Shown here: in pieces, positions 5,214-57,729 of the stretch
Numbering within the stretch: the first letter of the stretch is position 1
Layout: every line of letters begins with the position of its first letter
DNA from: Marchantia polymorpha subsp. ruderalis
Lineage: Eukaryota > Streptophyta > Marchantiopsida > Marchantiales > Marchantiaceae
Reading direction: 5' to 3'
DNA length: 64,000 nt
NCBI GenBank assembly: GCA_037833965.1
Contig: AP031356.1
Coordinates: 4,052,501-4,116,500, forward strand
The notes under the pieces: generated by a model
What the model was told of the DNA's origin: nothing
Seen by the model: the letters and a program-made list of their open reading frames with translations, nothing else
The model's database searches: none
Made by a program: the position numbers and the translations under genes

Positions 5214-5266
5214 TCTCCCAATGTCAAACTGAACTTGAAACTTTTTGAAGGCTTGGAGTGGTTCAG

Positions 5267-16979: not shown

Positions 16980-17052
16980 TTCCGTTGCCGGGACTTGAAC
17001 CCGGGTCGCTCGGGTGAGAGCCGAGTATCCTAACCAACTAGACTACAACGGA
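16980..17052 (-). tRNA. tRNA-Glu (anticodon CTC)
   Basis: On the - strand the 73-nt sequence folds as a standard cloverleaf. The acceptor stem is TCCGTTG with CAACGGA and discriminator A. The D loop contains GTTGGTTAGGA, the anticodon stem-loop is CGGCTCTCACCCG with anticodon CTC, and the T arm is CCGGGTTCAAGTCCCGG. The B box GGTTCAAGTCC is intact. CCA is not encoded, as expected for a nuclear gene. A run of four T on the transcribed side (16966-16969 in + coordinates) gives the Pol III terminator. There is no intron. Confidence 0.97.
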
Positions 17053-26325: not shown

Positions 26326-27342
26326 ATTAATAACCCACTAAAGGCTAAAAACTGCAATATAGTGGTAGAAAGGTCGAAGCCACAGGGACAGAGGAACACA
26401 CAGGGTACAAAGTGTCACATTTAACAGACTATTGAGGAGTTTGAATTCTCAGGCGACTGTCACTCCCAGAAATACTGCAAGTGTTCACTCGGAACTCACT
26501 CGGAGGTCGCACAGTGCAGCGTAACACACACACACACACACACACACACGCCTGAAACTACAGAAACACAACCCAGAGATCGGTTAGGACCTCTACTCCA
26601 GATTTCAAGGGGAAAGTCTCTCGCGAGTACACTTAGCAAAGCTGCGGGTAGTGACTCCCAACTCCGGCTTTTACAACCCTTCCACTAGTTTTCTGCTAGC
26701 GTAGGGAACCCGGTTTGGACTTCCTACTTCGGATCAAAGTCACTCACACGCGGTGAACAACACTCTCAACTCACAAAACGCTGAGAACACAAGTCCGCAC
26801 GGAAGGACTCACTGAGAAACGTTTCAGTAACACACCATAACAGTCTATTGAAGAGTTTGAATTCTTAGGCACTTGTCATTCCCAGAAATACTACAGGGGT
26901 TATCCTGAAGGCACCTGCTGCAGCGTAACTTGAATTTACAACCAAGGCTTACACGAAGTAGCAAAACTTCACTTTGGCATTCAGGGGAAAAATCCCGAAG
27001 GAGTACAATCAGGAACAGTCACTCGAAAGTGTAAGGGGGAAACTGTTCAAGTATCTAACTCGTCACTGGCTCTGAGCATCGGCAATCACCCGCAGGTGTA
27101 GATCCGAACTACTCAAGTCTCTAACCAATGTACTAGCTCTGAACATTCGGCCGAAGGTCTTCAGCTACAAAATGCGAAACGCCAAGTTGTAGCTCCTCTT
27201 GCGTGGTGACAGAACTAAGGACACAAACACGCAGAGAAAATGAGTTCCTGATCTGCACTTCCGAAACTGGAAAAATTCCAAGGCAAGACGCCTTGAACTA
27301 CTTTATACCTTCTAAGTCCTAACTAGCACTACACTGCACTAT

Positions 27343-29277
27343 CTATGCGCCTGCACGGAACCACGCTACACTACACTCCGCGGAACCTGTGCTTCGCCTC
27401 CTGCGCGACGGACTGCCGCGCACTAACTCTCTACCCTGCCAGTCTTCAGCTCGACTGCGCAATCCCAATCGCCGCAACACCGCGGAAACCTCCGTCTCAA
27501 GGGTGGCCATGGTGTCTCGCGCCTTCAACAGAAAAGAATCCAGCTTCTTCGCTACTCGCCGCCAACTCCGACTGTCACCTGTCAACAACCCGGCTGCACG
27601 AAGCTCTAACTCACGCAGTGTGAGTTTCTCCTGCGCCACCACTTCCCAGTGGGCGTAGCCCCTGAGGCAGTGGGTGACTCGCCTTGCCATCTCTTCCTTC
27701 GTGTGATCTGCCTCTCGCCGGCGATCGTCTTCAATTACTACCAACTGCGATTCGGCCTCCGCACGCTGTGCTCTCAATTCTCCGCACTCGGATTGCAGCC
27801 TGCGGATTAATTCCTCATCCGCCTGTCGTGCGAGCTGACACTGCTCTAACAACCGCGTCTGTTGCACGAGCTCCTATGACAAAATTTGATTCTGAGCCTG
27901 CTTAGAATCGAGCGCTTCCGTGAGCTTCACCTGCTCCTTGGCGAGCTCTTCCAGTCTCCCATCCCTCACCTTGTCGGAGTACTTGTAAAATTTTTGATTG
28001 AGGTTGTACTGACCCCACAAGCATTCATGCTTCTCTCGCAGATACTTAAGTTCCCGGTCCACCCGAGCTAGCAACTTGCTGGTGTGGACTTTAGTGCGAG
28101 TTCGCCTGCGCACTAACTCGACGTAGGACCCAGGCTGGTGAGGATCCGCGTATTTCTCCATCTTGCGATCCAAGTACCTCAGCAGAGGTACTACCTGCTC
28201 ATAGAGCGCCGCCGCCGGCGCACCAACTAATTCCTCCTCCTCCTCCTCGGTGGATCCCGATTCCGACACTGATTCCGTGGATCCTCCTTCTTCATCATCC
28301 TCCGAATTGAGGATTTCAGTCGCCATTGATTGCGTCGGCGACTGGCCTGAGTGGGGCTGCGAGATGGTTGCGTGTTCTGCCGCTGCTGGCGCTCCTGCAG
28401 CCTCGCTGCTCCCTGCTAAAATGTCCAAGGCGGTGGGTGAATGCGGCCGTACCACATCCCCATCGTCCGCCTGTCGTGCGTCGATTGTAACTTCTTCGCC
28501 GCCGGCGTCTACCGCCGAAGGCGATCGTGCGGAATGTACCTGCGCGGGGTGTAATTGTGCATCGCGCACACGAATTTCATCCTGCGGACAGACAATCCGC
28601 TCCTCCGTTAGGTCCCGCTCCCCCGATCGGTCCTGCGCGACACTTAGGTCCTTAGCGAGGGATGCGTCCGGCCTACGCGTAGGCGCAATTTCCGGCGCTT
28701 CATCCGCCAAAGGTGCAGTGCCGAAGCCGATAGAGCCGAAGGCGACCCGCCCGATGTTCCTTGGCCCGAAGGCCCTTCCGCCGAAGGCGCATCTTCCGGC
28801 GAATTCCCCGCCGAAGGTGCGGCTTCTGCCGGCTTCCTGTTTGTAACTCGCTGGCTCGAAGGCCCTGGCGCTCTTTCCGCCGGGGGGCCTTGCCCCGAAG
28901 GCCCTTGAGCCGAAGGCGGATCTTCTGCCGGCTCCTTCCCCTTCCTGCGTTGTACCGGGGGTGAGTCCTGCCTATGCGTAGGCGGCCGCCTATGCGTAGG
29001 CGAACTTTCTCTGCCTATGCGTAGGCACAGATCCACGTCCGCAAGGGGTCGCCTATCCACAGGGAGTCGCCTATGCGTAGGCGGCACACTCGTCTGCGCC
29101 GCACGGGGTAACTCCTGACCCGAAGGCTGTCTCTCTTCCGCCGAAGGCGTAGCGTGGTCTACCGCCCCTTCGGCGGTCCGCGTAGTCCCATCCTTCTCCG
29201 GGGACGAACTTCCCTTCTCTGTGGCGATCGTCGCCGTTTCCGCGCTGCTGGTTGGTAACAAAAGCCTGCAAGCCTTC
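27343..29277 (-). mobile_element. F1 U3 frame, C-terminal half (linker and coiled coil)
   Basis: On the - strand this encodes the disordered Pro/Ser/Ala-rich linker (words like PSAEGPSGQG and THRRPPTHRQ), the acidic run, and the Glu/Arg-rich coiled coil ending RRRRSTGSAECSVAWFRAGA. It aligns throughout with the C-terminal two-thirds of the intact frame at 31823-34912. The other half lies at 42560-41392. It is a fossil with a few breaks. Confidence 0.85.
28970..29082. repeat. Cluster of GCCTATGCGTAGGC palindromes
   Basis: The 14-base interrupted palindrome occurs at 28970-28983, 28988-29001, 29013-29026 and 29069-29082, with a degraded copy at about 29050-29063. In the U3 frame these read as PTHRR/PTHRQ-type peptides. 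Confidence 0.9.
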
Positions 29278-30892
29278 TGTGGTAACACACTTTTTGTTTT
29301 TTTTTGCAGAATTTAAACAATTTTAGAAAACTAGTACCGAAGCAGTGTTTGTAGTTAGAAAAGGGTACGTTAAATAGAGTGGATTGATGAGATCGTCACG
29401 AGGATACAAAGAATCATGTAGTCGGATGTACCAACGCCAATGTCTTCGGCGCCTTCGGCAAAAGCTCCTTTTCTTAGGTGTCTCTACTCACGCGCCTCCA
29501 GCGTATAAGGAAGCTACGCTTCCGGCGCAGACACCTCAGGAGGAGGTTTTGCTAAAGACGTCAGGAGAAGGGCCCGGACCTCTAAAGGCGTCCGACCATG
29601 AGTGCGCCTTCGGCGAAGCGCCGCTAGCGCGGAAAGGGAAAACCTTCATAACGATCGGGATACACGGTAGATCCAGTTGGTTGAAGTCGCATTAGAAAGA
29701 GCTCGAGACGCTTGTTCTAACGAGCCCAAGAGCGTCGGAGATGGATCAGGGACGGAGAAGTTATGAGCGTCGAAAAACTCGTAGCCGGACATGCGCCGTT
29801 CGCGCTAGGGTTCACAGCCGGAAAGGATTCCCGTACGCCCTCGGCGATGCGCCTTCGGCGGAATCACGCGCTCATAGGAGGAAACCAACTCAGAGTCGGA
29901 AGCGCCTTTGGCGGCTGTTCATGGAAGGAAAGCGCCGGTCGGATGTACGCCTCCGACGTGGCGCTGACGGCCGGATGCGCTGGCATGAGTTGCGCTGGCG
30001 GATATGCGCCGGCAGCAACGGACGAGGCATAAAGGACAAAATAAGCGGTACGACTGCGCGCCGGCGTAATTCGCTCCGACTAGATGTGCGCCTCCAGCAA
30101 GGCGCCGACGGATAATGAACGCACCAGCGGCGACACGCCTCCGGTGAGGGACGGGTTAGGAAAAGACAACAGGGCCAACGTATACCCTGCAGCGGACTCG
30201 AGTCCGGAAGGTGGCGGCGGCTGGAGAATTCAACATTTACGCATGCGAATGCGCGTAGTGCGGAGACGTGAATTCGCGCATGCAAAGGGCGAACCGTTAA
30301 GCCGTATAGCCGGCTGCGTACGTTGTAACCAGTAAGAACGTTGGACGTTCTTGAAATCGGAGAAGAAAAGACTGCGCTCCAGTCTCATTCTCTCATTCTT
30401 GATTTTGCGATTTCCAGTTTCCAAGATTACGCGCAAGAGCGGAGCGACCTGCAGTGAGAGTAGAGAGTGCGGAGACGAGTTGCGCAAGGATCTTGGCAGA
30501 CCTTGGAGAGAATTGCGAGTAGCGATCTTGAGCTTGAGCGCAGAGAGAGTGAGCAGTCGGTGCTTGAGCGGCCGACTGTGGTACCCCACTTTTGGTAATT
30601 TTGAGGAAATTAAAACATTTTTGGAAAAAACTGTGCCCTGGCAGCATTGTAAATAGCCTTCGGTACATCAAAACAGAGTGAATCCGGAAGATCGCGGGGA
30701 TTCTCGAGGGATCTTGTAGAATCTAGGATTTGGGGTGCAGCAGTAAGGATGGGCACCATCTTCCCTGCGAGCTCTGCAGTTAGGATCCCTGCGACGCAAG
30801 GCGCAAAACCCGCCTTCGGAGGTTGCGTCCGCGGCGGTAGGGAAATCCTTCATAATTAGGTCAACCCTCGGGCGCCTTGACCGAGTTAGGGT

Positions 30893-30929
30893 CTCGTTGG
30901 AAAGAGCTCGACGCACTGATTCCAACGAG
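30893..30929 (+). repeat. U3 hairpin module (type copy)
   Basis: CTCGTTGGAA at 30893-30902 pairs perfectly with TTCCAACGAG at 30920-30929, with a loop containing AGAGCTCGACGC. It is preceded by TTAGGGT and followed by 'ccaagaac' and an 'acggatgagg' word. The same module recurs in most LTR copies of the window. Confidence 0.85.
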
Positions 30930-31086
30930 TCCAAGAACGCTTGGAACGGATGAGGACTTAGGGAGTTATCACTATTGGAAGATACGTAGACGTTCGCCTT
31001 CGGCGGAAGAAGTTCGCCACCGGCGGGAATTCCGCCTACGCGGAAGGGGGAATCAAGTTTTGTCCTATGCGCGGACGAAGGAAGTT

Positions 31087-31163
31087 CGCCTGTGCACAGG
31101 CGAAGTAGGGTTTGGGGAGGCGCGAAGTCCGCCTACGCACAGGCGTTCGCCTGTGCACAGGCG
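31087..31163. repeat. Cluster of CGCCTGTGCACAGGCG palindromes upstream of the U3 frame
   Basis: Perfect 16-bp palindromes lie at 31087-31102 and 31148-31163, with a variant GCCTACGCACAGGC at 31131-31144. This DNA lies before the start codon of the U3 frame, so the palindromes are not explained by protein coding. Confidence 0.92.
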
Positions 31164-31447
31164 CTTCGGCGTCGGCGGAAAATCCGCCTTGGGCCCTAGA
31201 AATGCGCCTTGTGAGGTAGAAAGTGTACGGCGCCTTCTGCGCCAGCGCGGCGCCGCGGACGAGCAAGGAGCCGCCAGAGTAATCAAATCCGTACGGACCA
31301 TGCGGACGGGACGGGTGGATGCGCTCTTGGACGGACGGAGTGCGGCGGCGGAAGCGCCGACGAAGAGACAAGGAACGGACAGACTGGACGGAGACGGCTG
31401 ACCACGGTCAACGCCTTCCGCGCCAGCGCGACGCCGCGCACGGAATT

Positions 31448-31536
31448 CGCCTGCGCACAGGCGAGCGCCTGTGCACAGGAGGATGAAGTTCCGCGCCGGC
31501 GGAGAATCCGCCGAGGAGTCTGCCTGCGCACAGGCA
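31448..31536. repeat. Second palindrome cluster upstream of the U3 frame
   Basis: CGCCTGCGCACAGGCG at 31448-31463, CGCCTGTGCACAGG at 31466-31479 and TGCCTGCGCACAGGCA at 31521-31536. Confidence 0.88.
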
Positions 31537-31822
31537 GGAGTTGAACTTTTGTCCGACATGCGGACACACGCGTCGAGGCAGAAGGGGATTGGCCGAGGGG
31601 CGGTACGAACAAGTGTACCGCGCAAGGCGGAAAACTCGCCTTCGGCGCTGCGCTCCCATGTCCGCGGGGTAATACGCTCGCGGAGTTCAAATCCGCCAAT
31701 TCGAGCGTGAGAGTTTAATCGGCGACGGCGGAGCGTGAAGCCGCGCGTGAGAGCGGAGACCGTTCCAGCGTAGAGCCGGCGCGGCCATCAAGTGAGACGT
31801 CCTCCACGAGCAAGAGCCGACC

Positions 31823-34800
31823 ATGACCTTCGACCGGGCGGCGGAGAGCGTCCCATTCTTGAATTCGCGATTCCAATCTCTTGTGCGCGCTGCGCGCGTC
31901 CATCTGTTGGCTGCTAAACATTCTCGACGTCGCCGCACAGGGGATTTCTTGGTGATTGAGGGAGAAGTGAGTGCGCGGGATTTGGAATTGAGGGCGATTA
32001 GAGTTTGCCGAGAGAGAAAGGAGCTCGGGCGGTGCGGAAGTAGAATGAGCGGGCGAGCGAACTCCAGGAACGCAATGACGAGACCGGGCAGATTGCGGAT
32101 GGTGCCACTTCGCCTACCACAGAACGGGCTGCGCGCTTTCGAGGAGCGCTTAATTGCAAGAAAGCTCGATTTCTTGCTATGGGGATGGAACTACATCTGT
32201 GCGAATATGGTGCGCGAGTGGCTAGAGCCACAGGGACCACCCTCGCGCGGATTGCGTCCGCATGTTGATCGGTGGACAGTCCAAGATTGGGCGCAGGCAT
32301 TGGGAAGATGTGCCGGCATGCCAGGGCATCTCCTTTTCGACAGTGAGAGCATCAAGGTGACCAAGCAGGAAGAGGCGCAATTTGTGGAGCTGTTCAAGAC
32401 CGGGAGGTCTACCAAGAATGGGTACAGGACCCGTGATTACAAGGATCGATTTCGCCGGACTTTGTCCGCGGCGCTGATGCAATTACTGCAGCCACACCGC
32501 GCCTGCTACATCACATTGTGGCAGGTCTCTTTTGTGGAGTGCGTCATCGAGGGAACTCCAATTCACTGGGCGAGCATCCTGCACAGGGTGATGCGACAAC
32601 ACGCTTTTGAGGAGAAGGAGGGAACTCTAAACCATCTCTCTCCTTTCCTCATCAATTTTTATCGACAGCGGAATTGTTTGACAGCGGCGGAGTTTGAGCA
32701 TTTTCCGCCGTTGTCCGTCGACCATCCCGGGAAGTATGTGCGGGAGAATGAGGTCGACACTGATGCAGAGGAGTCACCGACTTCTACCCCATCAAGGCGG
32801 AGGGACGAAGGGAGAAACACTCCTGCAGCGCGAGTGCCGCGGAAGCGGCGATGGAGAGAAGAGTCCGAAGAGGAGCAGCATCAAGAACCCTCTGCTCCCA
32901 TTCGACCGCGGCCGTTGTACGAGTCATACAGCCGGCCGAAGCAGAAGGCACGAAGACTGGTGTTACCAGCCAACAGTGCGGACACGGCGACGATTGCGAC
33001 GGAGAAAGGAAGTGCGTCGCCAGAGAAGCATGAGGAAGCGCGGACGACCGCAGGAGCAACGGACCACGCTGCAGCCTCGACGGGCGAGAGGCCGCCTACG
33101 GGCCAAGGGCCTCCGGAGTTACCACGTGCGTTGCGGACAGGTGTTCCGTTTGCGCACGGACGAGCCTCCGCGGACAGACGATCACAAGTGGACGTAGATC
33201 TACGCTTACGCGTGGGAAGGAGCAGTCCGCCTGTGCACAGGTCACCTCCACACGTGCCGCCTGTGCACAGGCAGGAATCACCCCCGTTCCAACGTAGGAA
33301 GGGGAAGGAGCCGGCGGAAGAGCCGCCTACGAGACACCGGCCCTCGGGGCCAGACCCTTCGGCGCACCACGCGCCGCAATTTGCGCCTTCGGCGCCAGGG
33401 CCTTCGAGCCGAGGAGATACGAGCAGGGAGTGTGCGGAGGCCACACTATCGGCGGGTAATCCGCCGGTAGATGCGCCTTCGGCGGTAGGGCCTCAGGGCC
33501 AAGGGACATCGGGCGAGCGGCCCCCGGCCATGTCGCCTTTGGCGATGGACGTCCGCGGCGCTACGCCTGCGGCGGACAAGGCGCCGGCATTTGCGCCTGC
33601 GCACAGGCCAAGCACAGCCCCCGCGGACCGATCAAGGGAGCAGCAACAGACGGAGGAGCGGAGTGACTGTCCGCGGGATGAAATTTCGATGCGCGATGCG
33701 CAATCAAACCCTGCGCAGCCACCCTCCGCTCGATCGCCTTCGGCGGCGGGCGTCGGCGGCAGAGAGGACACGGTAGACGACCAACAAGCGAGCGGCGGGG
33801 ATGCCGCACGGGCACATTCGCCTACCGCCTTAGACATTTTGGCGAAGAGCAGCGAGGCTGCAGCCGTTCCTTCGCAGGCAGCACACGTCGACGACGTGCA
33901 GCCCCACTCGGGTCAGTCGCCGACGCAATCAATGGCGACTGAAATTCTCCACTCGGATGATGACGACGGAGGCTCCACCGAAGAAATGTCAGGAGCAGAG
34001 GACACCGAGGAGGAGGAGGAGGAAATTGTTGGAGCGCCGGCGGCGGCGCTCTCTGAGCAGGTGATTCCGTTGCTGAGGTACTTGGATCGCAAAGTCGATA
34101 AATACGCCGACCCACTTCAGCCGGGATCTTACATCGAGTTAGTGCGCAGGCGGACTCGCACTAAAGTCCACACCAGCAAGCTATTAGCTAGAGTGGACCA
34201 GGAGTTGAGGGAATTGAAGGAGAAGCATGAATGCTTGTGGGGCCAGTATAAACTTAATCAAAAATTCTACAAGTACTCCGAGAAGGTGAGGGATGGGAAA
34301 CTGGAAGAGCTCACCAAGGAGCAGGTGAAGGTCACGGAAGCACTAATTTCTGAGCAGGCCCAGAATCGGATTTTGTCAGAGGAGCTCGTGCGACAGACGC
34401 GGTTGTTGGAACAGTGTCAGCTCGCACGGCAGGCGGATGAGGAGGTAATCCGCAGGCTACAGTCAGAGTGTGGCGAATTGAGAGCGCAACGTGCTGAGGC
34501 CGAATCGCAATTAGTGATAGTTGAAGAGGATCGCAGGAAGGAGGCAGATCGCACAAAGGTGGAGACGGCGAGGCGTGTCGCCCACTGTCTCAAGGGCTAC
34601 GCCCACTGGGAAGTGAAGGCGCAGGAGAAACTCACACTGCGTGAGTTTGAACTTCGCGCAGCCGGGTTGTTGTCAGGCGACAGTAGGAGTCGGCGGAAGG
34701 TAGCAAAGAAGCTCGATGCTTTTCTGTCGAAGGCGCAGGATACCATGTCCGCCCTCGAAGTGGAGGTGTCCGCGGCGTTGCAGCGATTGGGACTGCGCAG

Positions 34801-34912
34801 TCGAGCGGAAGATTGGCAGGGTAGGGAGTTAGTGCGCGGCAGTCCGCCGCGCAGGAGACGTAGCACAGGTTCCGCGGAGTGTAGTGTAGCGTGGTTCCGC
34901 GCAGGCGTGTAG
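31823..34912 (+). CDS. U3 (LTR-embedded) frame of family F1, 1,029 residues, unknown function
   Basis: An open frame lying wholly inside an LTR. Residues about 90-310 form a conserved domain shared by families F1, F2 and F3 (words such as KLDFLLWGWNYICANMVREW, YRTRDYKDRF, GTLNHLSPFLINFYR), rich in predicted helices and Trp. A basic motif VPRKRRWREE (about 335) resembles a nuclear localisation signal. Residues about 340-690 are a disordered Pro/Ser/Ala/Gly linker. An acidic run (DDDDGGSTEE...TEEEEEE) follows near 710-730, then a Glu/Arg/Leu-rich coiled coil to about 990, ending in RRRRSTGSAEC. There is no signal peptide or membrane segment, so it is not an envelope protein. I cannot name the family with confidence. 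The frame has a better conserved start candidate at the internal Met before RPGRLRMVPLRLPQ, since the F2 relative begins there. It would be expressed from the 3' LTR copy of genomic RNA or from a separate promoter. Confidence 0.75.
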   Translation: MTFDRAAESVPFLNSRFQSLVRAARVHLLAAKHSRRRRTGDFLVIEGEVSARDLELRAIRVCRERKELGRCGSRMSGRANSRNAMTRPGRLRMVPLRLPQNGLRAFEERLIARKLDFLLWGWNYICANMVREWLEPQGPPSRGLRPHVDRWTVQDWAQALGRCAGMPGHLLFDSESIKVTKQEEAQFVELFKTGRSTKNGYRTRDYKDRFRRTLSAALMQLLQPHRACYITLWQVSFVECVIEGTPIHWASILHRVMRQHAFEEKEGTLNHLSPFLINFYRQRNCLTAAEFEHFPPLSVDHPGKYVRENEVDTDAEESPTSTPSRRRDEGRNTPAARVPRKRRWREESEEEQHQEPSAPIRPRPLYESYSRPKQKARRLVLPANSADTATIATEKGSASPEKHEEARTTAGATDHAAASTGERPPTGQGPPELPRALRTGVPFAHGRASADRRSQVDVDLRLRVGRSSPPVHRSPPHVPPVHRQESPPFQRRKGKEPAEEPPTRHRPSGPDPSAHHAPQFAPSAPGPSSRGDTSRECAEATLSAGNPPVDAPSAVGPQGQGTSGERPPAMSPLAMDVRGATPAADKAPAFAPAHRPSTAPADRSREQQQTEERSDCPRDEISMRDAQSNPAQPPSARSPSAAGVGGREDTVDDQQASGGDAARAHSPTALDILAKSSEAAAVPSQAAHVDDVQPHSGQSPTQSMATEILHSDDDDGGSTEEMSGAEDTEEEEEEIVGAPAAALSEQVIPLLRYLDRKVDKYADPLQPGSYIELVRRRTRTKVHTSKLLARVDQELRELKEKHECLWGQYKLNQKFYKYSEKVRDGKLEELTKEQVKVTEALISEQAQNRILSEELVRQTRLLEQCQLARQADEEVIRRLQSECGELRAQRAEAESQLVIVEEDRRKEADRTKVETARRVAHCLKGYAHWEVKAQEKLTLREFELRAAGLLSGDSRSRRKVAKKLDAFLSKAQDTMSALEVEVSAALQRLGLRSRAEDWQGRELVRGSPPRRRRSTGSAECSVAWFRAGV
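33229..33272. repeat. Palindromes GCCTGTGCACAGG(C) within the U3 frame
   Basis: 33229-33241 and 33259-33272 carry the same word as the upstream leader, here read as PPVHR in the linker. A further variant lies near 33594-33608. Confidence 0.9.
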
Positions 34913-34948
34913 CGTAGTGCAGTGTAGTGTTAGGTAGGACTTAGAAGG

Positions 34949-34977
34949 TATAAAATAGTTCCAGGCGTTTTGCCTGG
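34949..34977 (+). promoter_or_regulatory. LTR promoter TATA box and start-site hairpin (F1)
   Basis: TATAAAAT at 34949-34956 is followed 4 bases on by CCAGGC-gtttt-GCCTGG at 34961-34977, a perfect 6-bp stem. It lies after the U3 frame, 0.95 kb before the LTR end. The hairpin falls at or just upstream of where transcription would begin. Confidence 0.75.
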
Positions 34978-35946
34978 GGTTCTTTCCCAAATTCAGAAGT
35001 GCAGATCAGGAGCTCATTTTCTCTGCGTGTTTGTGTCCTTAGTTCTGTCACCACGCAAGAGGAGCTACAACTTGGCGTTCCGCATTTTGTAGCTGAAGGT
35101 CTTCGGCCGAATGTTCAGAGCTAGTACATTGGTTAGAGACTTGAGTAGTTCGGATCTACACCTGCGGGTGATTGCCGATGCTGAGAGCCAGTGACTAGTT
35201 AGATACTTGAATAGTTTCGCCCCTACACCTTCGAGTGTCTATTCCTGATTGTACTCCTTTGGGATTTTTCCCCTGAATGCCAAAGTGAAGTTTTGCTACT
35301 TCGTGTAAGCCTTGGTTGTAAATTAAGGTTACGCTGCAGCAGGTGCCTTGAGGGTAACCCCTGTAGTATTTCTGGGAATGACAAGTGCCTGAGAATTCAA
35401 ACTCTTCAATAGACTGTTGTTGTGTTACTGGAATGTTTCACAGTGAGTCCTTCAGTGCGGACCTGTGTTCTCTGCGCGTTTTGTGAGTTGAGAGTGTTGT
35501 TCACCGCGTACGAGTGACTTCGATCCGAAGTAGGCAGTCCAACCCGGGTTTCCTACGCTAGCAGCAAGCTAGTGGAAGTGTTGTAAAAGCCGGAGTTGGA
35601 AGTCACTACCCGCAGCTTCGCTGAGTGTACTCTTGAGAGACTTCCCCCCTGAAATCTTGAGTAGAGGTCCTAACGGATCTCTGGGTTGTGTTTCTGTAGT
35701 TTCAGGTGTGTGTGTGTGTGTGTGTGTTACGCTGCACTGTGCGACCTCCGAGCGCGCTCCGAGTGGACACTTGCAGTATTTCTGGGAGTGACAGTCGCCT
35801 GAGAATTCAAACTCCTCAATAGTCTGTTAAATGTGACACTTTGTACCCTGTGTGTTCCTCTGTCCCTGTGGGTTCGACCTTTCTACCACTATATTGCAGT
35901 TTTAGCCTTAAGTGGGTTATTACATAAGAAGCCGACAACTTCTTTT

Positions 35947-35964
35947 TGGCGCCGCTGCCGGGGA
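35947..35964 (+). other. Primer-binding site, tRNA-Asp type
   Basis: TGGCGCCGCTGCCGGGGA lies 22 bases beyond the LTR end. It is nearly the complement expected for the 3' end of plant tRNA-Asp(GTC), a primer known from several plant Ty3 elements. The same site occurs at 57752-57769. Confidence 0.85.
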
Positions 35965-36010
35965 CAGTTGCGTCAACACCGGGGTTTTTACGAGCAGCCA
36001 TGCTCGGTGA

Positions 36011-37950
36011 ATGTCGACTGGAGCTAGCGGGAGCAACCTAAGTGCGAGAGCTGTCCGCAGGTTCCGACGAGATTCAGAGAAGGCCGTGGAAGAGACACGG
36101 CGTCAAAACAAGAAAACACCAAAAAGAGTACCTAAGCCTAGTTCGGCCGACATCCTTGGGGAACCTACCCCCGGCGACTCGGAACCAAACTTGGTGCTTA
36201 CAGTTCTACTAGATATTCCTTGCACGGACCCTCCTCGTGATTTAGAAACGACCGCCCGAGAACCGTCGACAGACACACCGATGGCGGACGGACAAGCCAA
36301 TGTGCGGCTACCTCAGCCGATTACTAAACATTCCTACCCAAAGTATAAAGGGAGTGGGGATGACGACGATGCAGATTCATACATCAAGTTGTTCGAATCG
36401 GTGTCTATTGCCAATCGCGAGATCGCAGACGACGACCGACTAAGGATCTTTCCAAGCCTTCTGCGGAAGAAAGCGAGGAGTTGGTACAATCACGAGAGCA
36501 TCGATCCGACTGGGTTGACAACATGGGCCCAGCTGAAGGAGAAGTTCCTTCGCCGCTTCCGTGAGCTCGGCTACGACAGTCGGGTATTGACAAAGTTACG
36601 TAATTTGCAGCGAGAGAAGAAGGAGAGTCTGCGTGACTACACTTAGAGATTTCTGGACCTCCTTGACAGAATACCAAAAACAGGACCAGGGTCCCCTTTC
36701 TCGGTACAACAAGCTGTGGATTGGTACGTGACCGGCTTAACTCGGGAGATGGAGACTTTTTGCCGACGCAGCAAGTGCGACACTATTGAGGATGTGATTG
36801 CATCGGCAGAAGCCTTCGAAACTTCCACTCTCAACCGAAGAGGGAGAGAGAGACGGGAGTCAAAGGAGCGAAAACCGAAGGGAGGGCGAAGACGACGTAG
36901 AGGTACAACTCCGTCATCGGAAGAATCGTCTTCGGACGAGAACCGTTCCTCATCCGAAGAAGAGGAAACCTCATCGTCGGAGGAGGAGAAGAAGAGGAAG
37001 AAGCATGGGGCAGCGAAGAAGAAGGGCACCCGACGAGTGACTACGGACAGAGCGCCGGGAGACATAGCCTCGAAGATGGAGACCCTCGTGAAGGACTTCG
37101 CCGACCTCAAGGTTCAAGTGGTAGGCGGGCATGATCGCCGAAAATCACCCGGGAGAGTGCGAGCGAACTTATGGTGTACTACGTGCGGGGCGGTGGGACA
37201 TGCAAACACCGAGTGCCTTACCACCCGTCCGTCATATCCAGTCAACGCAGTAGAGTGGGCACAACCGTACTATGGAGAGCACCCCCAGTACTATGGAGAG
37301 GCTAGCGAAGAGACAGCCTACGCCGTCCAGTCGGTTCCCACCCCTACTGCAGTTTCAGCAATGCAAGTCCCACGATATCATCCGGTGGATCGGGCCACTA
37401 CAGTACCCGTGAGGCGGAGAGCACCTCCAGGGACGTTTGACCCACCGCCACCGCGAGCTTGTTATAATTGCGGGGAAGTTGGACACTTCTCACCGCAGTG
37501 TCCCCATCCAAAAAGGCGAAACGATTATGTTCCGACATGTAGTAATTGCAAGAAGACCGGGCATACTGCGCCAGAGTGTGATCAGCCACCAGTTCCTCGG
37601 CCATCGGTACGATTTGTGAACCCTCCTGCCAAGGAGGACGTCCAAGTTAACCAGGTCGAAGTAGGTTCAGACGGGGATGACGAAGACGAAGAATGGCCGG
37701 CGGAAGAGGTTATGTGCGCACGGGTCGAAACTCGTAGTTCTAAGAAATCGAAGGAGCAAGAGCGTGACACTCGCAAGCACGAACGGAGAACCGACGACCG
37801 GACGGGAAAAGGGAAGGAGAAGACATCCAGCAAGTCCGACTTGCGACCTGCACGGAAGTCTTCGGTTACGCGAGAGGCACCAGCAGTGCGCCCCCAGACA
37901 GCAGTCGAGGATGAGCCAGTACGCTTGCTGAAACGGGACTATGCTCCGGA
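36011..37950 (+). mobile_element. gag region of the F1 element (zinc knuckles)
   Basis: It starts at ATG 36011 (MSTGASGSNLSARAVRRFRR). It has a capsid-like core (DADSYIKLFESVSIANREI...ARSWYNHES...FLRRFRELGYDSRV), a Ser/Glu-rich acidic stretch, and three CCHC-type knuckles: CTTCGAVGHANTEC, CYNCGEVGHFSPQC and CSNCKKTGHTAPEC. It aligns with the gag at 57813-59550. The region is broken at least once. Near 37950 the gag sequence gives way, without interruption of the open frame, to the F2 U3 frame, so protease, reverse transcriptase and integrase are absent. Confidence 0.85.
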
Positions 37951-40400
37951 TATCCGCAAGCTCGATTTTCTCCTATGGGGGTGGAACTGGACATGTCCGG
38001 AGATGGTGCGCGAGTATATGCAGGAGAGACACAAGCCCTCTCGCGGATTCCGCCCACACCCAGAGAGATGGGACATTTGCAACTGGGCGCAGGTGTTGGG
38101 CAGGTGTGCCGGCGAGGAAGGGGACCTCCTCTTCGAGGCCGATAGCGTGAAGGTGTCCCAGGAGGAAGAAGTCTCTTACAATGAGCTCTTCAAAGTTGCC
38201 AGGCATCCCAAGAACGGTTTCCGGACACGGGATTACAAAGATCGATTGCGGAGAAATGTCGCGACTGCATTGCTGCAGATATTGCAGCCGACCAAGACCG
38301 CTTACATGCATGGTTGGCAGGTAGAATTTGTGGAGCTAGTGTTGTCAGGAGCTCCAGTGCATTGGGCACGGCTCATGTGGAAGGTGACGCGCCAACATGC
38401 GCAAGAAGAGAAAGGAGGAACCCTCAATCATCTCTCGCCTTACTTGATCGTGTTTTATCGGGCGATGGGATGTTTGACAAATGCTGAGAAAACACGGTTT
38501 CCGCAGCTGACCCGGAACTATCCAGGTAGATATTCGAGGGAGGCCGAAGTAGACACGGATCCGGACGAGGAACCTGCCAGTACGCCTCCGGCTCCGGCTC
38601 CAGCAAGAGCAGCAGAAGAACGTCGAAGTGAGCGCATTCCGCGAAAGCGGAAGTGGGATGAGAGACCTGAGGACAGGCAGCCGGAAGTGCCAGCTGCGCC
38701 GACTCGTGGTCGGCCCACCCCCGAGCCTCACAGTCGACCAAAACAGAGGGCACGCAAAATGCCAACTGGTACTGAGGAGACCGGGCGAACTCCGACCCGG
38801 CGGAATCTCACACAGGAGGAGATAATCGCTCAGATTCTAGGGAAGACGGCAGATACCTCTGCACAAAAGGCACCACGGCCTTCGGGAGGAGATGGACGGA
38901 CTAACAGTCGGCCGACTGCGAGTCGGATGACTGAAGGCCGACAAGCGGAAGGAAGGCCAACTGAACGGCGCGTTGAACCGGACAGCAGGCCGGAAGCAGA
39001 AGAGAGTTTGGCTGACGAGCCAACAACCCTCAGAGGGTCGTCTTCGGCGGAATGCACTTCTGGGAAAACGCCACCAGCAAGCAGGCCAAGTGGAGTCAAG
39101 ACGCGCAGGGTGTATTCGACTCCCAGTCAGACAACTGCTGGTCGGCCGACTACGAGTCGGACCACAGAGAGTCGGCCGGATTCGCCGACTGCGAGACGGA
39201 TGGGGCCAACGACCAGTGTGCGGACGCCTTCGGCGGACGCACCTCCAGCGAGGACACCTTCCGCGCAGATTGCGCCGGAAGGACAGGCAGCAAAAGCGGG
39301 CGGTGCAAGAGTGACAAGAGTCACTACGGCGTCGACCCCTTCGGAAACCGACGATCGAGCCGGAACAGGGGCTCAGGCAGTGGGATCTCCCACTGCCCTG
39401 GATATTTTAGCAGGCAGTGGAGCAGCAGTCGCAGAGGAAGCTGCTGCGCGCCACAGTTCCAGGGAGTCGCCAAGGGATTCGGTGGCGACTGAAATCCTCG
39501 AGACTGAGGATGAGACGAGCTCGGAAGAGCAGGAAGCGGATTCGGTGCAGAAAACGCCAACAGGGGTGCTGTGCGAACAGATAGTTCCACTCCTGCGATA
39601 TCTGAATCGCAAGACATCCAAATACGCAAGTGCTTTAAAACCGCAGTCTTATGAAGAGACTATCAGGCGCAGGACGAGGAGCAAGGTGGCAAAGTGGGCC
39701 TCTAGGTGCGGAGTATATGTGGATAGGAACACCGCCCTCCGACAACACCTGGCGGTCACACAGAAGCTATAGCAAGCCTTGCAGCAGCAGAGGAAGGAGG
39801 CGGCGACGAAAAGTCAGGCGGATGCCGAGCTAATACGGGCAAAGATCGAGTCGGAATTGCAGGAGGAGCGGAGACAAAACCAAGTCCTAGCAGCCGAGCT
39901 TACGCGCCAGACGCGCGCCTGAGAAGAAGGTCAAAGAGCCCGCAAGGAGGATGAGGAGTTGTTGCGCAACTTGCAATCCGAGTGCTCGGATTTGAGGGCA
40001 CAACGTGCGGAAGCAGAAATGCAGCTGGCAGAGGTGGAGAGCAGCTGTAGGGCGCGAGGAGAGTTGGCGACACAGGTGACTCGTTGTCTAAAAGGATACG
40101 CCCATTGGGAGGTGGTAGCTCAAGAGAGGATCACACTCAGGGAGTTCGAGCTTCGGGCGGCGGCATTGACGGAGGGTGACAGTCGGAGTCGGCGGCGAGT
40201 GGCGAGAAAATTAGAAACCTTCTTGTCGGGTGCGCGCGACACTATGGCGCACTTACAGTCGGAAGCACCACACCGCTCCGACGCCTGGGGTTACGCAGCC
40301 GGTCGGAAGACTGGCAAGGTAGAGACAGTAAGCGGAGCAGTCCGGCGCGCAGGAGGCGCAGCACCGGATCAGCCGAGTGCAGTAGAGTAGTTTGGTTTCG
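37951..40400 (+). mobile_element. F2 U3 frame, main part, joined to the F1 gag
   Basis: From KLDFLLWGWNWTCPEMVREY this is the F2 version of the U3 frame: the conserved domain, basic motif (IPRKRKWDE), linker rich in 'agtcggccgact' DNA words, acidic stretch and coiled coil (ELRAAALTEGDSRSRRR). It is very close to 54300-56771. Fossil with a few breaks. Confidence 0.85.
38906..39151. repeat. F2 palindromes AGTCGGCCGACT in the linker
   Basis: AGTCGGCCGACT is a perfect 12-bp palindrome at 38906-38917. A near copy, GGTCGGCCGACT, is at 39140-39151, and many shorter 'gagtcgg' words lie between them. F1 has quite different palindromes in the same part of the homologous frame. Confidence 0.85.
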
Positions 40401-40458
40401 CGCAGATGCTGCGAGTAGTAGATAGGATAGCGTAGTGCTAGTTAGGATCTTTTGAGGG

Positions 40459-40487
40459 TATAAAGTAGATCAAGGCGTTTTGCCTTG
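40459..40487 (+). promoter_or_regulatory. LTR promoter TATA box and start-site hairpin (F2)
   Basis: TATAAAGT at 40459-40466, then CAAGGC-gtttt-GCCTTG at 40471-40487. Compared with F1 (CCAGGC with GCCTGG), the second base pair is changed on both sides, so the stem is kept. Confidence 0.75.
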
Positions 40488-41391
40488 GGACTCTTCCAGT
40501 TTCGGAAGTGCAGATCAGGAACTCACTTTCTTGGCGTGTTTGTGCATTTTTGGTCCTGGCACCACGTAGAGAAGCTGCAGCATAGCGAAGTTACCGTATG
40601 TTGTAGTTGAAGGCCTTCGGCTGAATGTTCAGAGCTAGCACCCGGTTAGAGACTTGAGTAGTGCGGATCTGCACCTGCGGGTGATTTCTGATGCTAAGAG
40701 CCGGCTGCGAGTTAGAGACTTGAACAGTTCCCCCTTACTCCTTCGAGTGACATATCCTGATTGTACTCCTACGGGAAGTTTCCCCTGAATGCCAATGTGA
40801 AGTTTCATTACTTCGTGTAAACCTTGGTTTGTAATTCAGGTTGTGTGTGTGTTACTGGATCGTGTTTTCAGTAAGTTCTCAGTCGGGTCTGCACTCCCTG
40901 CGTTTGGTGTGATAGTCGAGGGTGACGTCCACGGCGTATGTAGAGGCTTCGTTCCGAAGTGGGAAGTCCAGTCCGGGTACCCCCGCTAGTTCCTGGCGGA
41001 AGGGCAGTAAAAGCCGGAGTGGGAGGCACTACCTGCAGAACCTCTGAGTGAACTTGTGAGACACTTTCCTCCTAAAATCCGAAGCGGAGGTCCTGACCGA
41101 CCTCCGAGTTGTGCTTTTTGCCAGTTTCAGGTGTGTGTGTGTGTGTGTGATTGAGTGACCACGCTATACCGTGCATCCTCCGAGCATCCTCCGAGTTGAG
41201 ATCCTCCTCCGAGTCGAGCCTCCGAGTCGAGCACTGCAGTATTTCTGGGAGTGACAGTCGCCTAGAATTCAAACTCTACAAAAGTCTGTTAAACGTGACA
41301 CTTTTACTCTGTGTGTTGCCTCTGTCCCTGTGGGTTCGATCTTTTTACCACCATACTGCAGTTTTAGCCTTTGATGGGTTATTACACCTTC

Positions 41392-42560
41392 TGCTTCGGC
41401 CGGCTGCAAACTTCGTGCAGTGGCCGCTTTTGTGTGAGAGCAGCGGGTTCTCGACGTTGCTCTTTCTCCGGTTCCTCTCTCCATCTTCGCTTCCGCGGCA
41501 CTCTCGCTGCGGGTGTGTCTCTTCCCGCATCCTGTTGAGTTGGTGGAGTGGAAGTTGGCGAATCCTCGATGGCAAATTCGTTGTGTCTGTTGGCATTGTT
41601 GGCAAATCCGTCGGTGTCTACCTCGTTATCCCGCACATACCTCCCGGGATGGTCGACTGACAATGGCGGAAATCGAGCACACTCCGCCGCGGTTAAACAA
41701 TTCATCTCCCGATAAAAATTTATCAAGAAGGGGGAGAGGTGATTGAGAGTTCCTCCCCGCTCCTCAAACGCATGCTGTCGCATCACCCTATGCAGGATAC
41801 GCGACCAGTGAACTGGAGCTCCGGCCAAGATGAGCTCCACGAAGGACACCTGCCACAACGTGATGTACGTAGTGCGGTGCGGCTGCAACAATTGCAACAG
41901 CGCCATCGCTAGGGTGTTGCGGAAACGATCTTTGTAGTCGCGGGTCCTGTACCCGTTCTTGGAAGACCTCTCCCGCTTGAATAATTCCACAAAGGAGGCT
42001 TCGTCCTGCTTTGTTACCTTGACATTCTCACTCTCGAATAGGAGGTCCCCGTCGTCACCTGCGCACCTCCCCAATGCCTGTCCCCAATCGCGGACAGTCC
42101 ATTTATCTACGTGCGGACGCAATCCGCGTGTAGGTGGTCGCTCCTCGTCCAGCCATTCGCGCACCATGTCTACGCACACGTAATTCCATCCCCACAGCAA
42201 GAACTCGAGTTTCCTTGCAATCAGCCGTTCCTAAAAGGCACGCAACACATTCTGCGGTAGCTTGAGTGGCACCATCCGCAGCCTCATCGATTTCGACATT
42301 GCGTTCTTGAAATTGGTTCGCGCAACTCTCTCTCTGCTCTGCCCGAGCCTCTTGCTCGCGCTTCTGCCTCCTCTGCAAACTCTAATTTCTCTCAATTCCA
42401 ACTGTCGCGCACTCAATTCTCTTTTAGCCACCGAGTAACTCTCCGCGCGGTGATGTCTAGAACGTCTCTCAGCTAGCAGGTGGACGCGCGCAGATCGCAC
42501 CAGAAATTGAAATCGCAAATTCAAGAATGGGGCGTCCTCTGTCTCCTCGTAGGAGGTCAT
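41392..42560 (-). mobile_element. F1 U3 frame, N-terminal part (conserved domain)
   Basis: On the - strand from 42560 (MTSYEETEDAPFLNLRFQ) to the insertion point, encoding the conserved domain (LWGWNYVCVDMVREWLDEER, YRTRDYKDRF, GTLNHLSPFLINFYR) and the basic motif VPRKRRWREE. It ends in SRPKQK, exactly where the other half at 29277 begins. It is the partner of 27343-29277, split by the nested F2 LTR. Fossil with a few breaks. Confidence 0.85.
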
Positions 42561-43232
42561 GATCGGCTCTCAGTCGTGAAGGTCGAATCACTTGATGGCC
42601 GCGCCGGCTCCGCGGTATAACGGCCTTCTCTCTCACGCGCGGCTTCACGCTCCGCCGACGCCGACTTCACTCACACGCTCGAATTGGTAATTTGAACTCC
42701 GCCAGCATATCACGCCGCGGCCATGGGCGCGCAGCGCCAAAGGCGGATTTCTTGCCGGCGCGCTACACTCCTTCGTACTTCAATTTGGCTAGTCCCGCTC
42801 CGCCGAAGGCGTTCGTCCGCGCATAGGACAAAAGTCGAACTCCCTTCTGCGTAGGCGGAATCCCCGGCGGAGTTTCCGCCGCCGCAGAACTTCATCTGCC
42901 TGTGCGTAGGCGAATTCCGTCCGCACACAGGACAATCATCCGCGCAGGTCCCTCGCTGCAGGCGCAGCGCCGAAGGCGACTGTGCCGAAGGCGTTGACCG
43001 CGGTCAACGGACTCCGTCCAGTCTGTCCATTTCTCTCGCCTCTCCGTCGGCGCTCTTGTCTCCGTAATCCCGACCGGACGAAGGCGCACTCGTCCGTACA
43101 GTCCGTACGGATTTTACTACTCCGTTGAGTCCTTGCCCATCCGTGATGCGCTGGCGCCGAAGGCGCCGTACAAGTTCCAACCCCGAAGGCGGATTTCTAG
43201 GGCCGAAGGCGGACTTCCCGCCGACGCCGAAG

Positions 43233-43356
43233 CGCCTATGCGTAGGCGATTCCCGTTCGCCTATGCGTAGGTGCAAATCCTCCCCGCCTATGCGTAGGCG
43301 GCATTCTCGGCGGACACCCCGCTTACGTCAAGCCCTATTTCGCCTATGCATAGGCG
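43233..43356. repeat. Palindrome cluster CGCCTATGCGTAGGCG in the F1 solo LTR leader
   Basis: Copies at 43233-43248, 43258-43271 and 43285-43300, and a perfect 16-bp palindrome CGCCTATGCATAGGCG at 43341-43356. All lie on the 5' side of the U3 frame (- strand), in untranslated DNA. Confidence 0.9.
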
Positions 43357-43421
43357 AAGATCTTTGTATCTTTCGACCGTCACAACTCCCTGAGTCCTCA
43401 TCCGTTCCAGGCATTTTTGGG

Positions 43422-43458
43422 CTCGTTAGAATCAGCGCATCAAGCTCTTTCCAACGAA
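43422..43458 (-). repeat. U3 hairpin module in the F1 solo LTR
   Basis: On the - strand the arms are TTCGTTGGAA and TTCTAACGAG, with loop AGAGCTTGATGCGCTGA. It lies about 310 bases after the LTR start, as in the F1 LTR at 30577. Confidence 0.75.
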
Positions 43459-43775
43459 ACCCTAACCAAGTCAAGGCGTTTGGCAATTGATCAGATTCTG
43501 AGGGATTTCTCTAGCGCCAAAGGCGTAGCGCCGAAGGCGGCTTAGGCGCCTTGCGCCGAAGGGGTACTCCTTCAGAGCCCGTCGTTTAGGGCGGTGTCTG
43601 TCCCAGACGTTGCGCCCAACTCCTGGATTCTACGAGATTCTTTGAGATTCTCCGAGATCATCCAGTTTCACTCTATTTTGATGCACCGATGGCTATTTAC
43701 ACTGCTGCCGCGGTACAGTTTTCCGAAAATGTTTTAAATTTCGCAAAAACATCAAAAGTGGGGTACCACACCATC

Positions 43776-55800: not shown

Positions 55801-57729
55801 GTTCCAGGGAGTCGCCAAGGGATTCGGTGGCGACTGAAATCCTCGAAACGGAGGATGAGACGGGTTCGGAAGAGCAGGAAGCGGACTCTGTGCAGAAAAC
55901 GCCAACAGGGGTGTTGTGCGAGCAGATAGTTCCACTCCTGCGATATCTGGATCGCAAGACATCCAAGTACTCGGGTACCGGAAAACCGCAGTCTTACGTG
56001 GAGACTGTCAAACGCAGGACGAGGAGCAAGGTGGCCACTTGGGCCTCTAGGTGCCAAACATTGCAGGATAAGAACACTACCCTCCGATAGCACCTGGCGG
56101 TCACGCAGAAGCTATACCAAACCCTGCAACAACAGAGGGAGGATGCGGCGACGAAAAACCAGGCGGATGCCGAGCTAATGCGGGCAAAGATCGAGTCGGA
56201 ATTGCAGGAAGAGCGGAGACAAAACCGCATCTTAGCAGAAGAGCTTGCGCGCCAGAAGCGCGCCTTAGAAGAAAGTCAAAGTACACGCAAGGAGGATGAG
56301 GAATTGTTGCGCAACTTGCAATCCGAGTGCGCGGATTTGAGGGCGCAGCGCGCAGATGCGGAAATGCAGCTAGCAGAGGTGGAAGGCAGCTGCAGGACGC
56401 GAGAAGAGTTGGCGACGCGGGTGACTCACTGTCTAAAAGGATACGCCCATTGGGAGGTGGCAGCTCAAGAGAAGGTCACACTCAGGGAGTTTGAGCTTCG
56501 GGCGGCGGCATTGACGAAGGGTGACAGTCGGAGTCGGCGGCGAGTGGCAAGGAAATTGGAAGCCTTCTTGTCTGGTGCGCGCGACACTCCGGTGCACTTG
56601 GAGTCGGAAGTGACTGCAGCCCTCCGGCGTCTGGGGTTGCGCAGCCGGTCGGAAGATTGGCAAGGTAGAGATAGAGAGCGAGGCAGTCCGGCGCGCAGGA
56701 GGCGCAGCACCGGATCTGCAGAGTGCAGTAGCGTAGTTTGGTTTCGTGCAGGTGTTGCGAGTAGTAGATAGGATAGCGTAGTATTAGTTAGGACCTTAGA
56801 GGGTATAAAGTAGATCAAGGCGTTTTGCCTTGGGACTCTTCCAGTTTCGGAAGTGCAGATCAGGAAATCACTTTCTTGACGTGTTTGTGCATTTGGTCCT
56901 GGCACCACGTAGAGAAGCTGCAGCATAGCGAAGTTACCGTATGTTGTAGTTGAAGGCCTTCGGCTGAATGTTCAGAGCTAGTACCCGGTTAGAGACTTGA
57001 GTAGTGCGGATCTGCACCTGCGGGTGATTTCTGATGCTCAGAGCCGGCTACGAGTTAGAGACTTGAACAGTTCCCCCTTACTCCTTCGAGTGACATATCC
57101 TGATTGTACTCCTACGGGAAGTTTCCCCTGATGCCAAAGTGAAGTTTTATTACTTCGTCTAAGCCTTGGTTTGCAATTCAGGTTGTGTGTGTGTGTTACT
57201 AGATTGTGTCTCAGTTAAGTTCTCAGTCGGGCATGTACCCCCTGCGTTTGGTGTGAGTCGAGGGTGACGTCCACGGCGTATGAAGGGGCTTCGTTCCGAA
57301 GTGGGAAGTCCAGTCCGGGTTCCCTACGCTAGTTCCTGGCGGAAGGGCAGTAAAAGCCGGAGTGGGAGTCACTACCTGCAGAACCTCTGAGTGAACTTTT
57401 GAGACACTTTCCCCCTGAAATCCGAAGCGGAGGTCCTGACCGACCTCCGAGTTGTGCTTTTCCAGTTTCAGGTGTGTGTGTGTGTGTGTGTTGAGTGACT
57501 ACGTTGTACTGTGCATCCTCCGAGCATCCTCCGAGTCGAGTATCCTCCTCCGAGTCGAGCCTCCGAGTCGAGCACTGCAGTATTTCTGGGAGTGACAGTC
57601 GCCTGAGAATTCAAACTCTACAAAAGTCTGTTAAACGTGACATTTTTTACTCTGTGTGTTGCCTCTGTCCCTGTGGGTTCGATCTTTTTACCACCATACT
57701 GCAGTTTTAGCCTTTGGTGGGTTATTACA
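52877..57729 (+). mobile_element. F2 LTR, complete (4.85 kb), with U3 frame
   Basis: It starts TGTGGTAACAC and ends GGGTTATTACA, followed by a primer-binding site. The U3 frame spans about 54210-56771: conserved domain (KLDFLLWGWNWTCPEMVREY), linker with AGTCGGCCGACT palindromes at 55251-55262 and 55485-55496, acidic stretch and coiled coil ending RRRRSTGSAECSS. The frame has about three breaks. TATA box TATAAAGT at 56804-56811, start-site hairpin CAAGGC/GCCTTG at 56816-56832, and a TG repeat near 57472-57491. It is the 5' LTR of the element that continues to about 61740. Confidence 0.88.

What the first reader, a model, noticed from the sequence alone, without database searches (positions are those of the whole stretch)
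30577..35924. A 1,029-codon frame lies inside the LTR, upstream of the LTR promoter
Three independent LTRs carry the same frame between the LTR start and a TATA box near the LTR end: F1 at 30577, the F1 solo LTR at 43770-26326, and F2 at 52877. In the solo LTR, target duplications or host sequence lie on both sides, so the frame really is part of the repeat. With the TATA at 34949 in use, the frame is in U3 and would sit after pol in genomic RNA. The layout matches the known sag gene of mouse mammary tumour virus, but the protein is unrelated in appearance: no signal peptide, a basic motif, an acidic run and a coiled coil. I know of no described plant Ty3 lineage with this layout.
Basis: partly seen in the sequence, partly recalled or inferred. 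Interest (0 to 1): 0.9.

Follow-up and report, generated by a model that had tools for sequence, protein, structure and literature searches.

The report
Liverwort retrotransposon gene inside its LTR
A Ty3-type retrotransposon of a Marchantia liverwort carries, inside each of its 5.3-kb terminal repeats, a long protein gene that natural selection has kept working, a layout known from a mouse retrovirus but not, as far as I could find, from plants.

Summary
The 1,029-codon frame (31823-34912) lies inside a 5,348-bp LTR (30577-35924), upstream of a conserved TATA box. Elsewhere in the same genome three elements are flanked by LTR pairs and exact 5-bp target duplications, and 10 of the 20 best copies are solo LTRs with exact duplications. 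The frame is a real gene: 29 of the 45 scored copies have no stop, frameshifts occur in 4 of 26 copies read, and pN/pS among 12 open copies is 0.10 in the N-terminal and 0.21 in the C-terminal part; differences between the two LTRs of one element show no such constraint. The conserved protein probably starts at codon 85 (945 aa): a second subfamily starts there, and codons 1-84 evolve almost freely (0.80). Named relatives are all Marchantia polymorpha. No known domain, fold or membrane segment was found. Layout resembles MMTV sag; membership is not claimed. Best explanation: an LTR-encoded accessory protein, probably a nuclear regulator of its own family, made from a separate mRNA. Constraint is shown; nuclear site, regulation and transcripts are inferred. 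Not found in print in seven topic searches of an open-access library. New variant of a known kind.

The parts
30577..35924 (+). F1 LTR, 5,348 bp, holding the frame; followed by spacer, PBS and gag
31823..34912 (+). Open frame of 1,029 codons in U3 (P0001)
32075..34912 (+). Probable conserved coding sequence, from codon 85: N domain (codons 85-330), variable linker (331-730), C-terminal part rich in heptads (731-1029)
   Evidence: start shared with F2-type L041/L042; pN/pS by segment
34949..34954 (+). TATA box downstream of the frame's stop codon; inferred promoter of genomic RNA, so the frame is in U3
   Evidence: GGTATAAAATAG in 25 of 26 F1 copies; F2 GGTATAAAGTAG at 56804
35947..35965 (+). 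Primer binding site TGGCGCCGCTGCCGGGGAC, 22 nt after the LTR end (identified by eye)
36011..37957 (+). gag part of F1, cut off at 37957 where the older F2-type LTR resumes
29278..30576 (+). First part of an F2-type solo LTR into which F1 inserted; TSD CCTTC at 29273-29277
37958..41386 (+). Second part of the same F2-type solo LTR; TSD CCTTC at 41387-41391
41387..43770 (-). 5' part of a minus-strand F1-type solo LTR with a decayed copy of the frame
26326..29277 (-). 3' part of the same minus-strand F1-type solo LTR
52877..57729 (+). F2 LTR with a homologous but interrupted frame; TATA at 56804, PBS after 57729
31087..31536 (+). Cluster of five palindromic sites CCTG(C/T)GCACAGG in the F1 U3 upstream of the frame (three more at 33230, 33260, 33596 inside it)
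   Evidence: role not shown

Best explanation
The LTR of this Ty3-type family encodes an accessory protein of about 945 aa in U3. Because the gene is in U3, it is copied from the 3' end of the genomic RNA into both LTRs of each new insertion, and solo LTRs keep it (established knowledge of reverse transcription). The protein is maintained by selection during propagation (shown). It has a conserved N domain, a fast-evolving linker with basic clusters, and a conserved C-terminal part with coiled-coil-like heptads; it has no membrane segment (sequence analysis). I infer a nuclear protein acting in trans on its own family, as transcriptional activator or anti-silencing factor, made from an mRNA distinct from gag-pol RNA: either a spliced RNA joined just upstream of the conserved ATG in the 3' LTR, as in MMTV sag, or an RNA from a promoter in the first 1.5 kb of U3. 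Location and constraint: about 0.95. Nuclear regulator: about 0.4. Spliced route over own promoter: about even.
For: LTR pairs and TSDs. Open frames: 29 of 45 scored copies without stop, 13 of 26 read in detail; frameshifts in 4 of 26, the other indels multiples of three. pN/pS pooled over 66 pairs of 12 of the 13 open F1 copies: codons 1-84 0.80, 85-330 0.10, 331-730 0.59, 731-1029 0.21; L041 versus L042 dN/dS 0.24. Post-insertion control, two LTR pairs: 27 nonsynonymous to 2 synonymous, with 3 more codons left out because one copy has a stop. F1 and F2 proteins are 42% identical, gag-pro 59%, a pol stretch 87%: fast evolution. Basic clusters RKRR/RKRK at nearly the same place in F1 and F2 (256, 258), 19-residue hydropathy at most 1.19. 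F2 copies have TGTGTGCAG|G 8 nt before the ATG; GTGAGT occurs at aligned U5 sites in F1 and F2. No TATA(A/T)A upstream of the frame in the LTR and 11 ATGs upstream of the conserved start. Parallel: VANC anti-silencing proteins with conserved domains, variable regions and family-specific motif arrays (PMC5735166, passages).
Against: No RNA or protein data. F1's acceptor (CCAG|G, 7 nt before the ATG, after a purine-rich stretch) is poor. The palindromes in F1's U3 are not significantly better conserved than random blocks of the same region (25% of 500 block sets as low) and are absent from the F2 LTR and the older F1-type LTR, so a binding-site role has no support beyond their number. No DNA-binding domain or fold found. 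A second TATAAA lies inside the frame at 34247 in the window copy. The LTR-pair control is small (29 changes), and only 2 of 29 fall on third positions, which suggests mutational bias.
Confidence: 0.5

Rival explanations
1. The protein is a particle or pre-integration factor (nuclear import, integrase partner, RNA packaging) and not a regulator; its basic clusters and coiled coil serve assembly or import.
For: Basic clusters and heptads; a review suggests nuclear-import or accessory roles for such ORFs (PMC7264820, passages).
Against: It evolves faster than gag-pro and a pol stretch between F1 and F2, and its expression from an LTR would not be tied to gag-pol dosage (inference).
Confidence: 0.25
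2. It is an envelope-like or movement protein in an env-like position after pol.
For: Position after pol in genomic RNA.
Against: No hydrophobic segment: highest 19-residue hydropathy 1.14 in F1 and 1.19 in F2; no env-like Pfam match.
Confidence: 0.05
3. The frame is a passenger or chance ORF in GC-rich LTR DNA.
For: GC 60%; the linker is repetitive and codons 1-84 look almost neutral.
Against: Segment-wise pN/pS of 0.10 and 0.21, in-frame indels, 42% identical F2 protein of the same architecture.
Confidence: 0.03
4. Selection acts on the host's behalf: solo LTRs serve as host genes (as proposed for endogenous MMTV Sag).
For: 4 of the 10 solo LTRs with exact TSDs have open frames; almost all endogenous MMTVs keep sag intact (PMC3026287, passages).
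Against: Listed copies are 92-100% identical and numerous, as expected of recent transposition; 6 of those 10 solo LTRs are broken; constraint is seen between elements and not in the small post-insertion control.
Confidence: 0.07

Closest known systems
Mouse mammary tumour virus sag (PMC3026287, passages seen)
   Same: Accessory gene in the LTR, after the other genes in the RNA, making the LTR long; there a splice acceptor lies just upstream of the frame
   Different: No relation of the proteins known (not compared); here 945 aa with no hydrophobic segment, a plant Ty3-type element, LTR 5.3 kb against about 1.3 kb, transcript unproven
Accessory ORFs of plant LTR retrotransposons: Retand TRP28 (PF04195), Ogre plant mobile domain (PF10536), Athila ORF-1 (PF03078) (PMC11963269 and PMC6317226, passages; PMC7264820, part 1 of 3 and passages)
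   Same: Extra protein of unknown role typical of a lineage of large plant elements
   Different: Retand's lie between pol and the 3' LTR, mostly antisense, and the review places extra ORFs in the internal region; this one is sense and inside the LTR; no Pfam match to those domains. PMC6317226 sorts extra ORFs only as 5' or 3' of the polyprotein, so I cannot exclude LTR-internal ones there
Marchantia polymorpha 'hypothetical proteins' AXG93_* and Mp_8g15400
   Same: Homologous over N domain, C-terminal part or both
   Different: Named as hypothetical proteins; the names shown do not mention an LTR or transposon
VANC of Arabidopsis VANDAL transposons (PMC5735166, passages)
   Same: Transposon-encoded protein with conserved and variable regions; related families carry different repeated motifs
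   Different: DNA transposon (recalled); no sequence relation tested; motif binding is shown there and not here

Membership tests
Ty3-type LTR retrotransposon | gag, protease, RT, RNase H, integrase in Ty3 order | tested here: met
   L029 internal region of the L003 element: Retrotrans_gag, CCHC, Asp protease, then RT, RNase H, H2C2, rve
Ty3-type LTR retrotransposon | Paired LTRs, TG..CA ends, TSD | tested here: met
   three elements with exact 5-bp TSDs
Chromovirus | chromodomain at the integrase end | tested here: not met
   no chromodomain in the 943-aa pol ORF of one copy
Tat lineage with additional RNase H | aRH domain | tested here: not met
Phygy / Selgy / Athila / Tat Z | RT-INT phylogenetic position | not tested
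   no reference set at hand
MMTV sag-like layout | ORF wholly inside U3 of both LTRs | tested here: met
   both LTRs read in two elements (L006 open in both; L002 with stops in both), in part in a third (L003, 3' LTR interrupted); U3 assignment rests on the TATA box
MMTV sag | homologous superantigen protein | not tested
   no direct comparison with Sag; Pfam scans of the frame gave no match
MMTV sag-like layout | mRNA spliced to an acceptor just upstream of the ORF | not testable with these tools
   candidate sites only
Retand TRP28 / Ogre PMD / Athila ORF-1 accessory proteins | PF04195, PF10536 or PF03078 domain | tested here: not met
   not among the families matched by 6 and 32 members scanned at E up to 10, a scan that drops most matches above about 0.1; distant homology not excluded
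Transposase_32 (PF20167) | profile match | tested here: inconclusive
   not matched in members; own-genome search empty, but its controls rang nowhere
VANC-like anti-silencing factor | binds family-specific motifs and demethylates own family | not testable with these tools
   motif array present in the F1 LTR, absent from the F2 LTR, not significantly better conserved than its surroundings

The most novel reading that the evidence does not exclude
The LTR is a self-contained regulatory gene unit: LTRs with an open frame, solo ones included, encode a family-specific nuclear factor that keeps its own family expressed against silencing. Solo LTRs would then be trans-acting helpers and not inert relics, in a genome with 3,114 matches to the start of the F1 LTR.
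Probability: 0.25. Interest if true: 0.88.

Novelty: new variant of a known kind. Interest (0 to 1): 0.72.

Why it matters
LTRs are usually treated as regulatory DNA and extra genes are looked for between them. Here a gene under strong purifying selection sits wholly in the LTR of a family with over 3,000 LTR starts in one genome, so solo LTRs are potential gene copies, and dozens of public Marchantia 'hypothetical proteins' are related to it. The host is M. polymorpha, a laboratory model, or a close relative, so transcript, localisation and effect on silencing can be tested directly; other plant elements with very long LTRs deserve the same check.

Tried and rejected
Chance ORF: rejected by constraint and in-frame indels. 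Frame lying away from an LTR: an LTR start was found in 19 of the 20 best loci. L009/L010 as an LTR pair: rejected, both are the same solo LTR with the same TSD in a 16.5-kb duplication. Stops shared by many F2-type hits as a dead subfamily: rejected for the one copy examined, L042, where the stops precede the conserved ATG; the others were not examined. Structure of the N domain: mean pLDDT 38 with 4 sequences and 51 with 32; PDB fold search gave 3 matches, best E 6.2, dismissed. PDB sequence search: one hit at E 2.2, dismissed. Pfam hits to Extensin_1, CENP-K, SCNM1 and SKG6 (best E 0.0002-0.002, in one or two members each) dismissed as low-complexity or coiled-coil matches. P0059 as proof that the frame follows pol in M. 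polymorpha: downgraded, since its counterpart here is one contiguous 729-bp match, hence a deletion relic. U3 palindromes as conserved binding sites: no significant conservation. Cross-species conservation: not claimed, because the genome is close to M. polymorpha (96% and 92% matches).
Full report
What is there. The window (G000 contig C7:4052501-4116500; genome 241 Mb, 9 contigs) holds nested LTR elements. A minus-strand F1-type solo LTR (43770-41387 and 29277-26326) is split by an F2-type solo LTR (29278-30576 and 37958-41386, TSD CCTTC on both sides). That LTR is in turn split by a truncated F1 element: LTR 30577-35924, primer binding site at 35947, gag to 37957. Another F2 element starts at 52877, with its LTR ending at 57729. 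The frame 31823-34912 lies wholly in the F1 LTR, and its stop codon ends 37 bp before a TATA box at 34949.

It is part of the LTR in the genome at large. Among the 20 best DNA copies, LTR ends recur; 10 are solo LTRs with exact 5-bp target duplications (two of them one duplicated locus), 4 run on into the internal region, 6 have imperfect or rearranged ends. Three elements (5' LTRs in L006, L002, L003) were followed to their 3' LTRs. Their target duplications are GTAAG, TGTAA and CGCCA, and by my subtraction of nested insertions the internal region is about 5.8 kb in each. The frame was read in both LTRs of two of them (L006: open in both; L002: stops in both); the 3' LTR of the third is interrupted by an insertion and was read in part. 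One internal region (L003's) carries gag-protease and RT-RNase H-integrase, with the pol frame ending 37 bp before the 3' LTR, so no further gene fits between pol and LTR. With up to two mismatches the genome holds 3,114 matches to the first 30 bases of the F1 LTR and 1,297 to a 27-base stretch with the primer binding site, which F1 and F2 share; controls 0. The two counts are of different sets, so no ratio of solo to complete elements follows.

It is a gene. A protein search of the genome scored 45 places of 13,024 first-look candidates: 29 of 45 have no stop, at 98-100% identity. Of 26 copies read in detail (L001-L020, two 3' LTRs and four neighbouring LTRs), 13 are fully open and 4 have frameshifts; the remaining indels are multiples of three. 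Among 12 of the 13 open copies (66 pairs; the 5' LTR of L006 left out because its 3' LTR was used) pooled pN/pS is 0.35, split as 0.80 (codons 1-84), 0.10 (85-330), 0.59 (331-730) and 0.21 (731-1029). Pairwise dN/dS is 0.15-0.55, with bootstrap intervals for four pairs inside 0.17-0.54. Two LTR pairs, whose differences arose after insertion, have 27 nonsynonymous and 2 synonymous changes, 3 stop-bearing codons left out. The contrast shows constraint while elements propagate and none visible afterwards; the control is small, and its lack of third-position changes hints at mutational bias.

Where the protein starts. Open F2-type copies L041 and L042 (3-kb stretches; their LTR ends were not fetched) encode 853 and 851 aa starting at the equivalent of F1 codon 85, in the shared context ACGCAATG; L042 has in-frame stops upstream, L041 does not. 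Together with the near-neutral codons 1-84, this makes 32075 the likely start. One unnamed relative (P0016) keeps the F1-like extension, so an extended form is not excluded. F1 and F2 proteins are 42% identical, gag-pro 59% and a 366-aa pol stretch 87%: the LTR protein evolves fastest of the three.

Relatives. Sequence searches found 4, 74 and 58 proteins. The method needs shared 5-residue words, and searches scored only about 8,000 candidates each, so remote relatives may be missed. Mp_8g15400 is 96% identical to L042 over 499 aa, and the counterpart of AXG93_725s1500 here is 92% identical, so the window's genome is M. polymorpha or a close relative. The gene model AXG93_694s1010 joins part of the end of the frame (60% identical over 120 aa) to gag (82% over 304 aa), as a frame lying in the 5' LTR would give. 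Gene models are predictions.

Anatomy. No Pfam family matches the F1 frame, and weak hits in relatives look like coiled-coil or low-complexity matches. AlphaFold2 gave low-confidence, mainly helical models (pLDDT 38 and 51), and no PDB fold matched credibly. The protein has a conserved N domain, a Pro/Ser/Thr-rich linker (30%), basic clusters at nearly the same place in F1 (RKRR) and F2 (RKRK), acidic runs, and a heptad-rich C-terminal part; the highest 19-residue hydropathy is 1.19. Nuclear location is inferred.

How it may be expressed. The TATA downstream of the frame is intact in 25 of 26 F1 copies and present in F2, placing the frame in U3. The LTR before the frame has no TATA(A/T)A, and there are 11 ATGs before the conserved start. 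F2 copies carry TGTGTGCAG|G 8 nt before the ATG; F1 copies carry CCAG|G 7 nt before it in a purine-rich setting (the site was found by pattern in 23 of 26 F1 copies, one of which reads CTAG); GTGAGT occurs at aligned U5 sites in both. MMTV sag mRNA uses an acceptor just upstream of its LTR frame (PMC3026287, passages). These sites are candidates only; a promoter in U3 is as likely.

What it may do. Fast evolution between subfamilies, conserved ends with a variable middle, and a subfamily-specific array of a palindrome (eight exact CCTGYGCACAGG sites in the F1 LTR, none in the F2 LTR or in the older F1-type solo LTR) recall VANC anti-silencing proteins and their targets (PMC5735166, passages). 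Against this, the palindromes are not significantly better conserved than random blocks of the region. I therefore hold 'nuclear regulator of its own family' at about 0.4.

Verdict. Confirmed, real, and unusual: a constrained LTR-encoded accessory gene in an abundant liverwort Ty3-type family; a new variant of the known kind 'LTR retrotransposon with an extra gene', with MMTV sag as the nearest layout.

Noticed in passing
35925-35946 and the same place after 57729: A 22-nt spacer with an inverted repeat (AAGAAG..CTTCTT in F1) separates LTR end and primer binding site in F1 and F2; usual spacers are shorter (recalled), so U5-end processing may be unusual.
   Followed up: no
G000 C4:14580665-14625838; C5:31215361-31237442: Element-length tandem arrays: pol matches spaced exactly 11,190 bp (five in a row) and F2-type frame matches spaced 10,657 bp (three in a row), as LTR-internal-LTR-internal arrays would give.
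   Followed up: no
31087-31536, 33230-33607: Palindrome CCTG(C/T)GCACAGG, 8 exact sites in the F1 LTR; with one mismatch and both strands counted, 19 matches in the window against 0.33 expected.
   Followed up: partly
28513-63986, scattered: CGCCTTCGGCG occurs 26 times in the window against 0.02 expected, never before 28513; in the four LTRs counted always on the coding strand. In RNA it could form a small hairpin.
   Followed up: partly
L021:2335-5175 (minus): A 946-aa frame with RT, RNase H and integrase ends in a PHD finger; it abuts the end of an F1-type LTR.
   Followed up: no
about 35365-35419 and 35775-35839: A diverged direct repeat in R-U5 (GTATTTCTGGGA..TTCAAACTC), seen by eye.
   Followed up: no
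782-20015: Four to five diverged copies of another repeat (300-nt blocks at 1320, 4436, 12089, 14248, 19716).
   Followed up: no
public Marchantia polymorpha proteins AXG93_*, Mp_8g15400: Many annotated hypothetical proteins resemble pieces of this LTR gene; two examined ones are joined to gag or integrase.
   Followed up: partly
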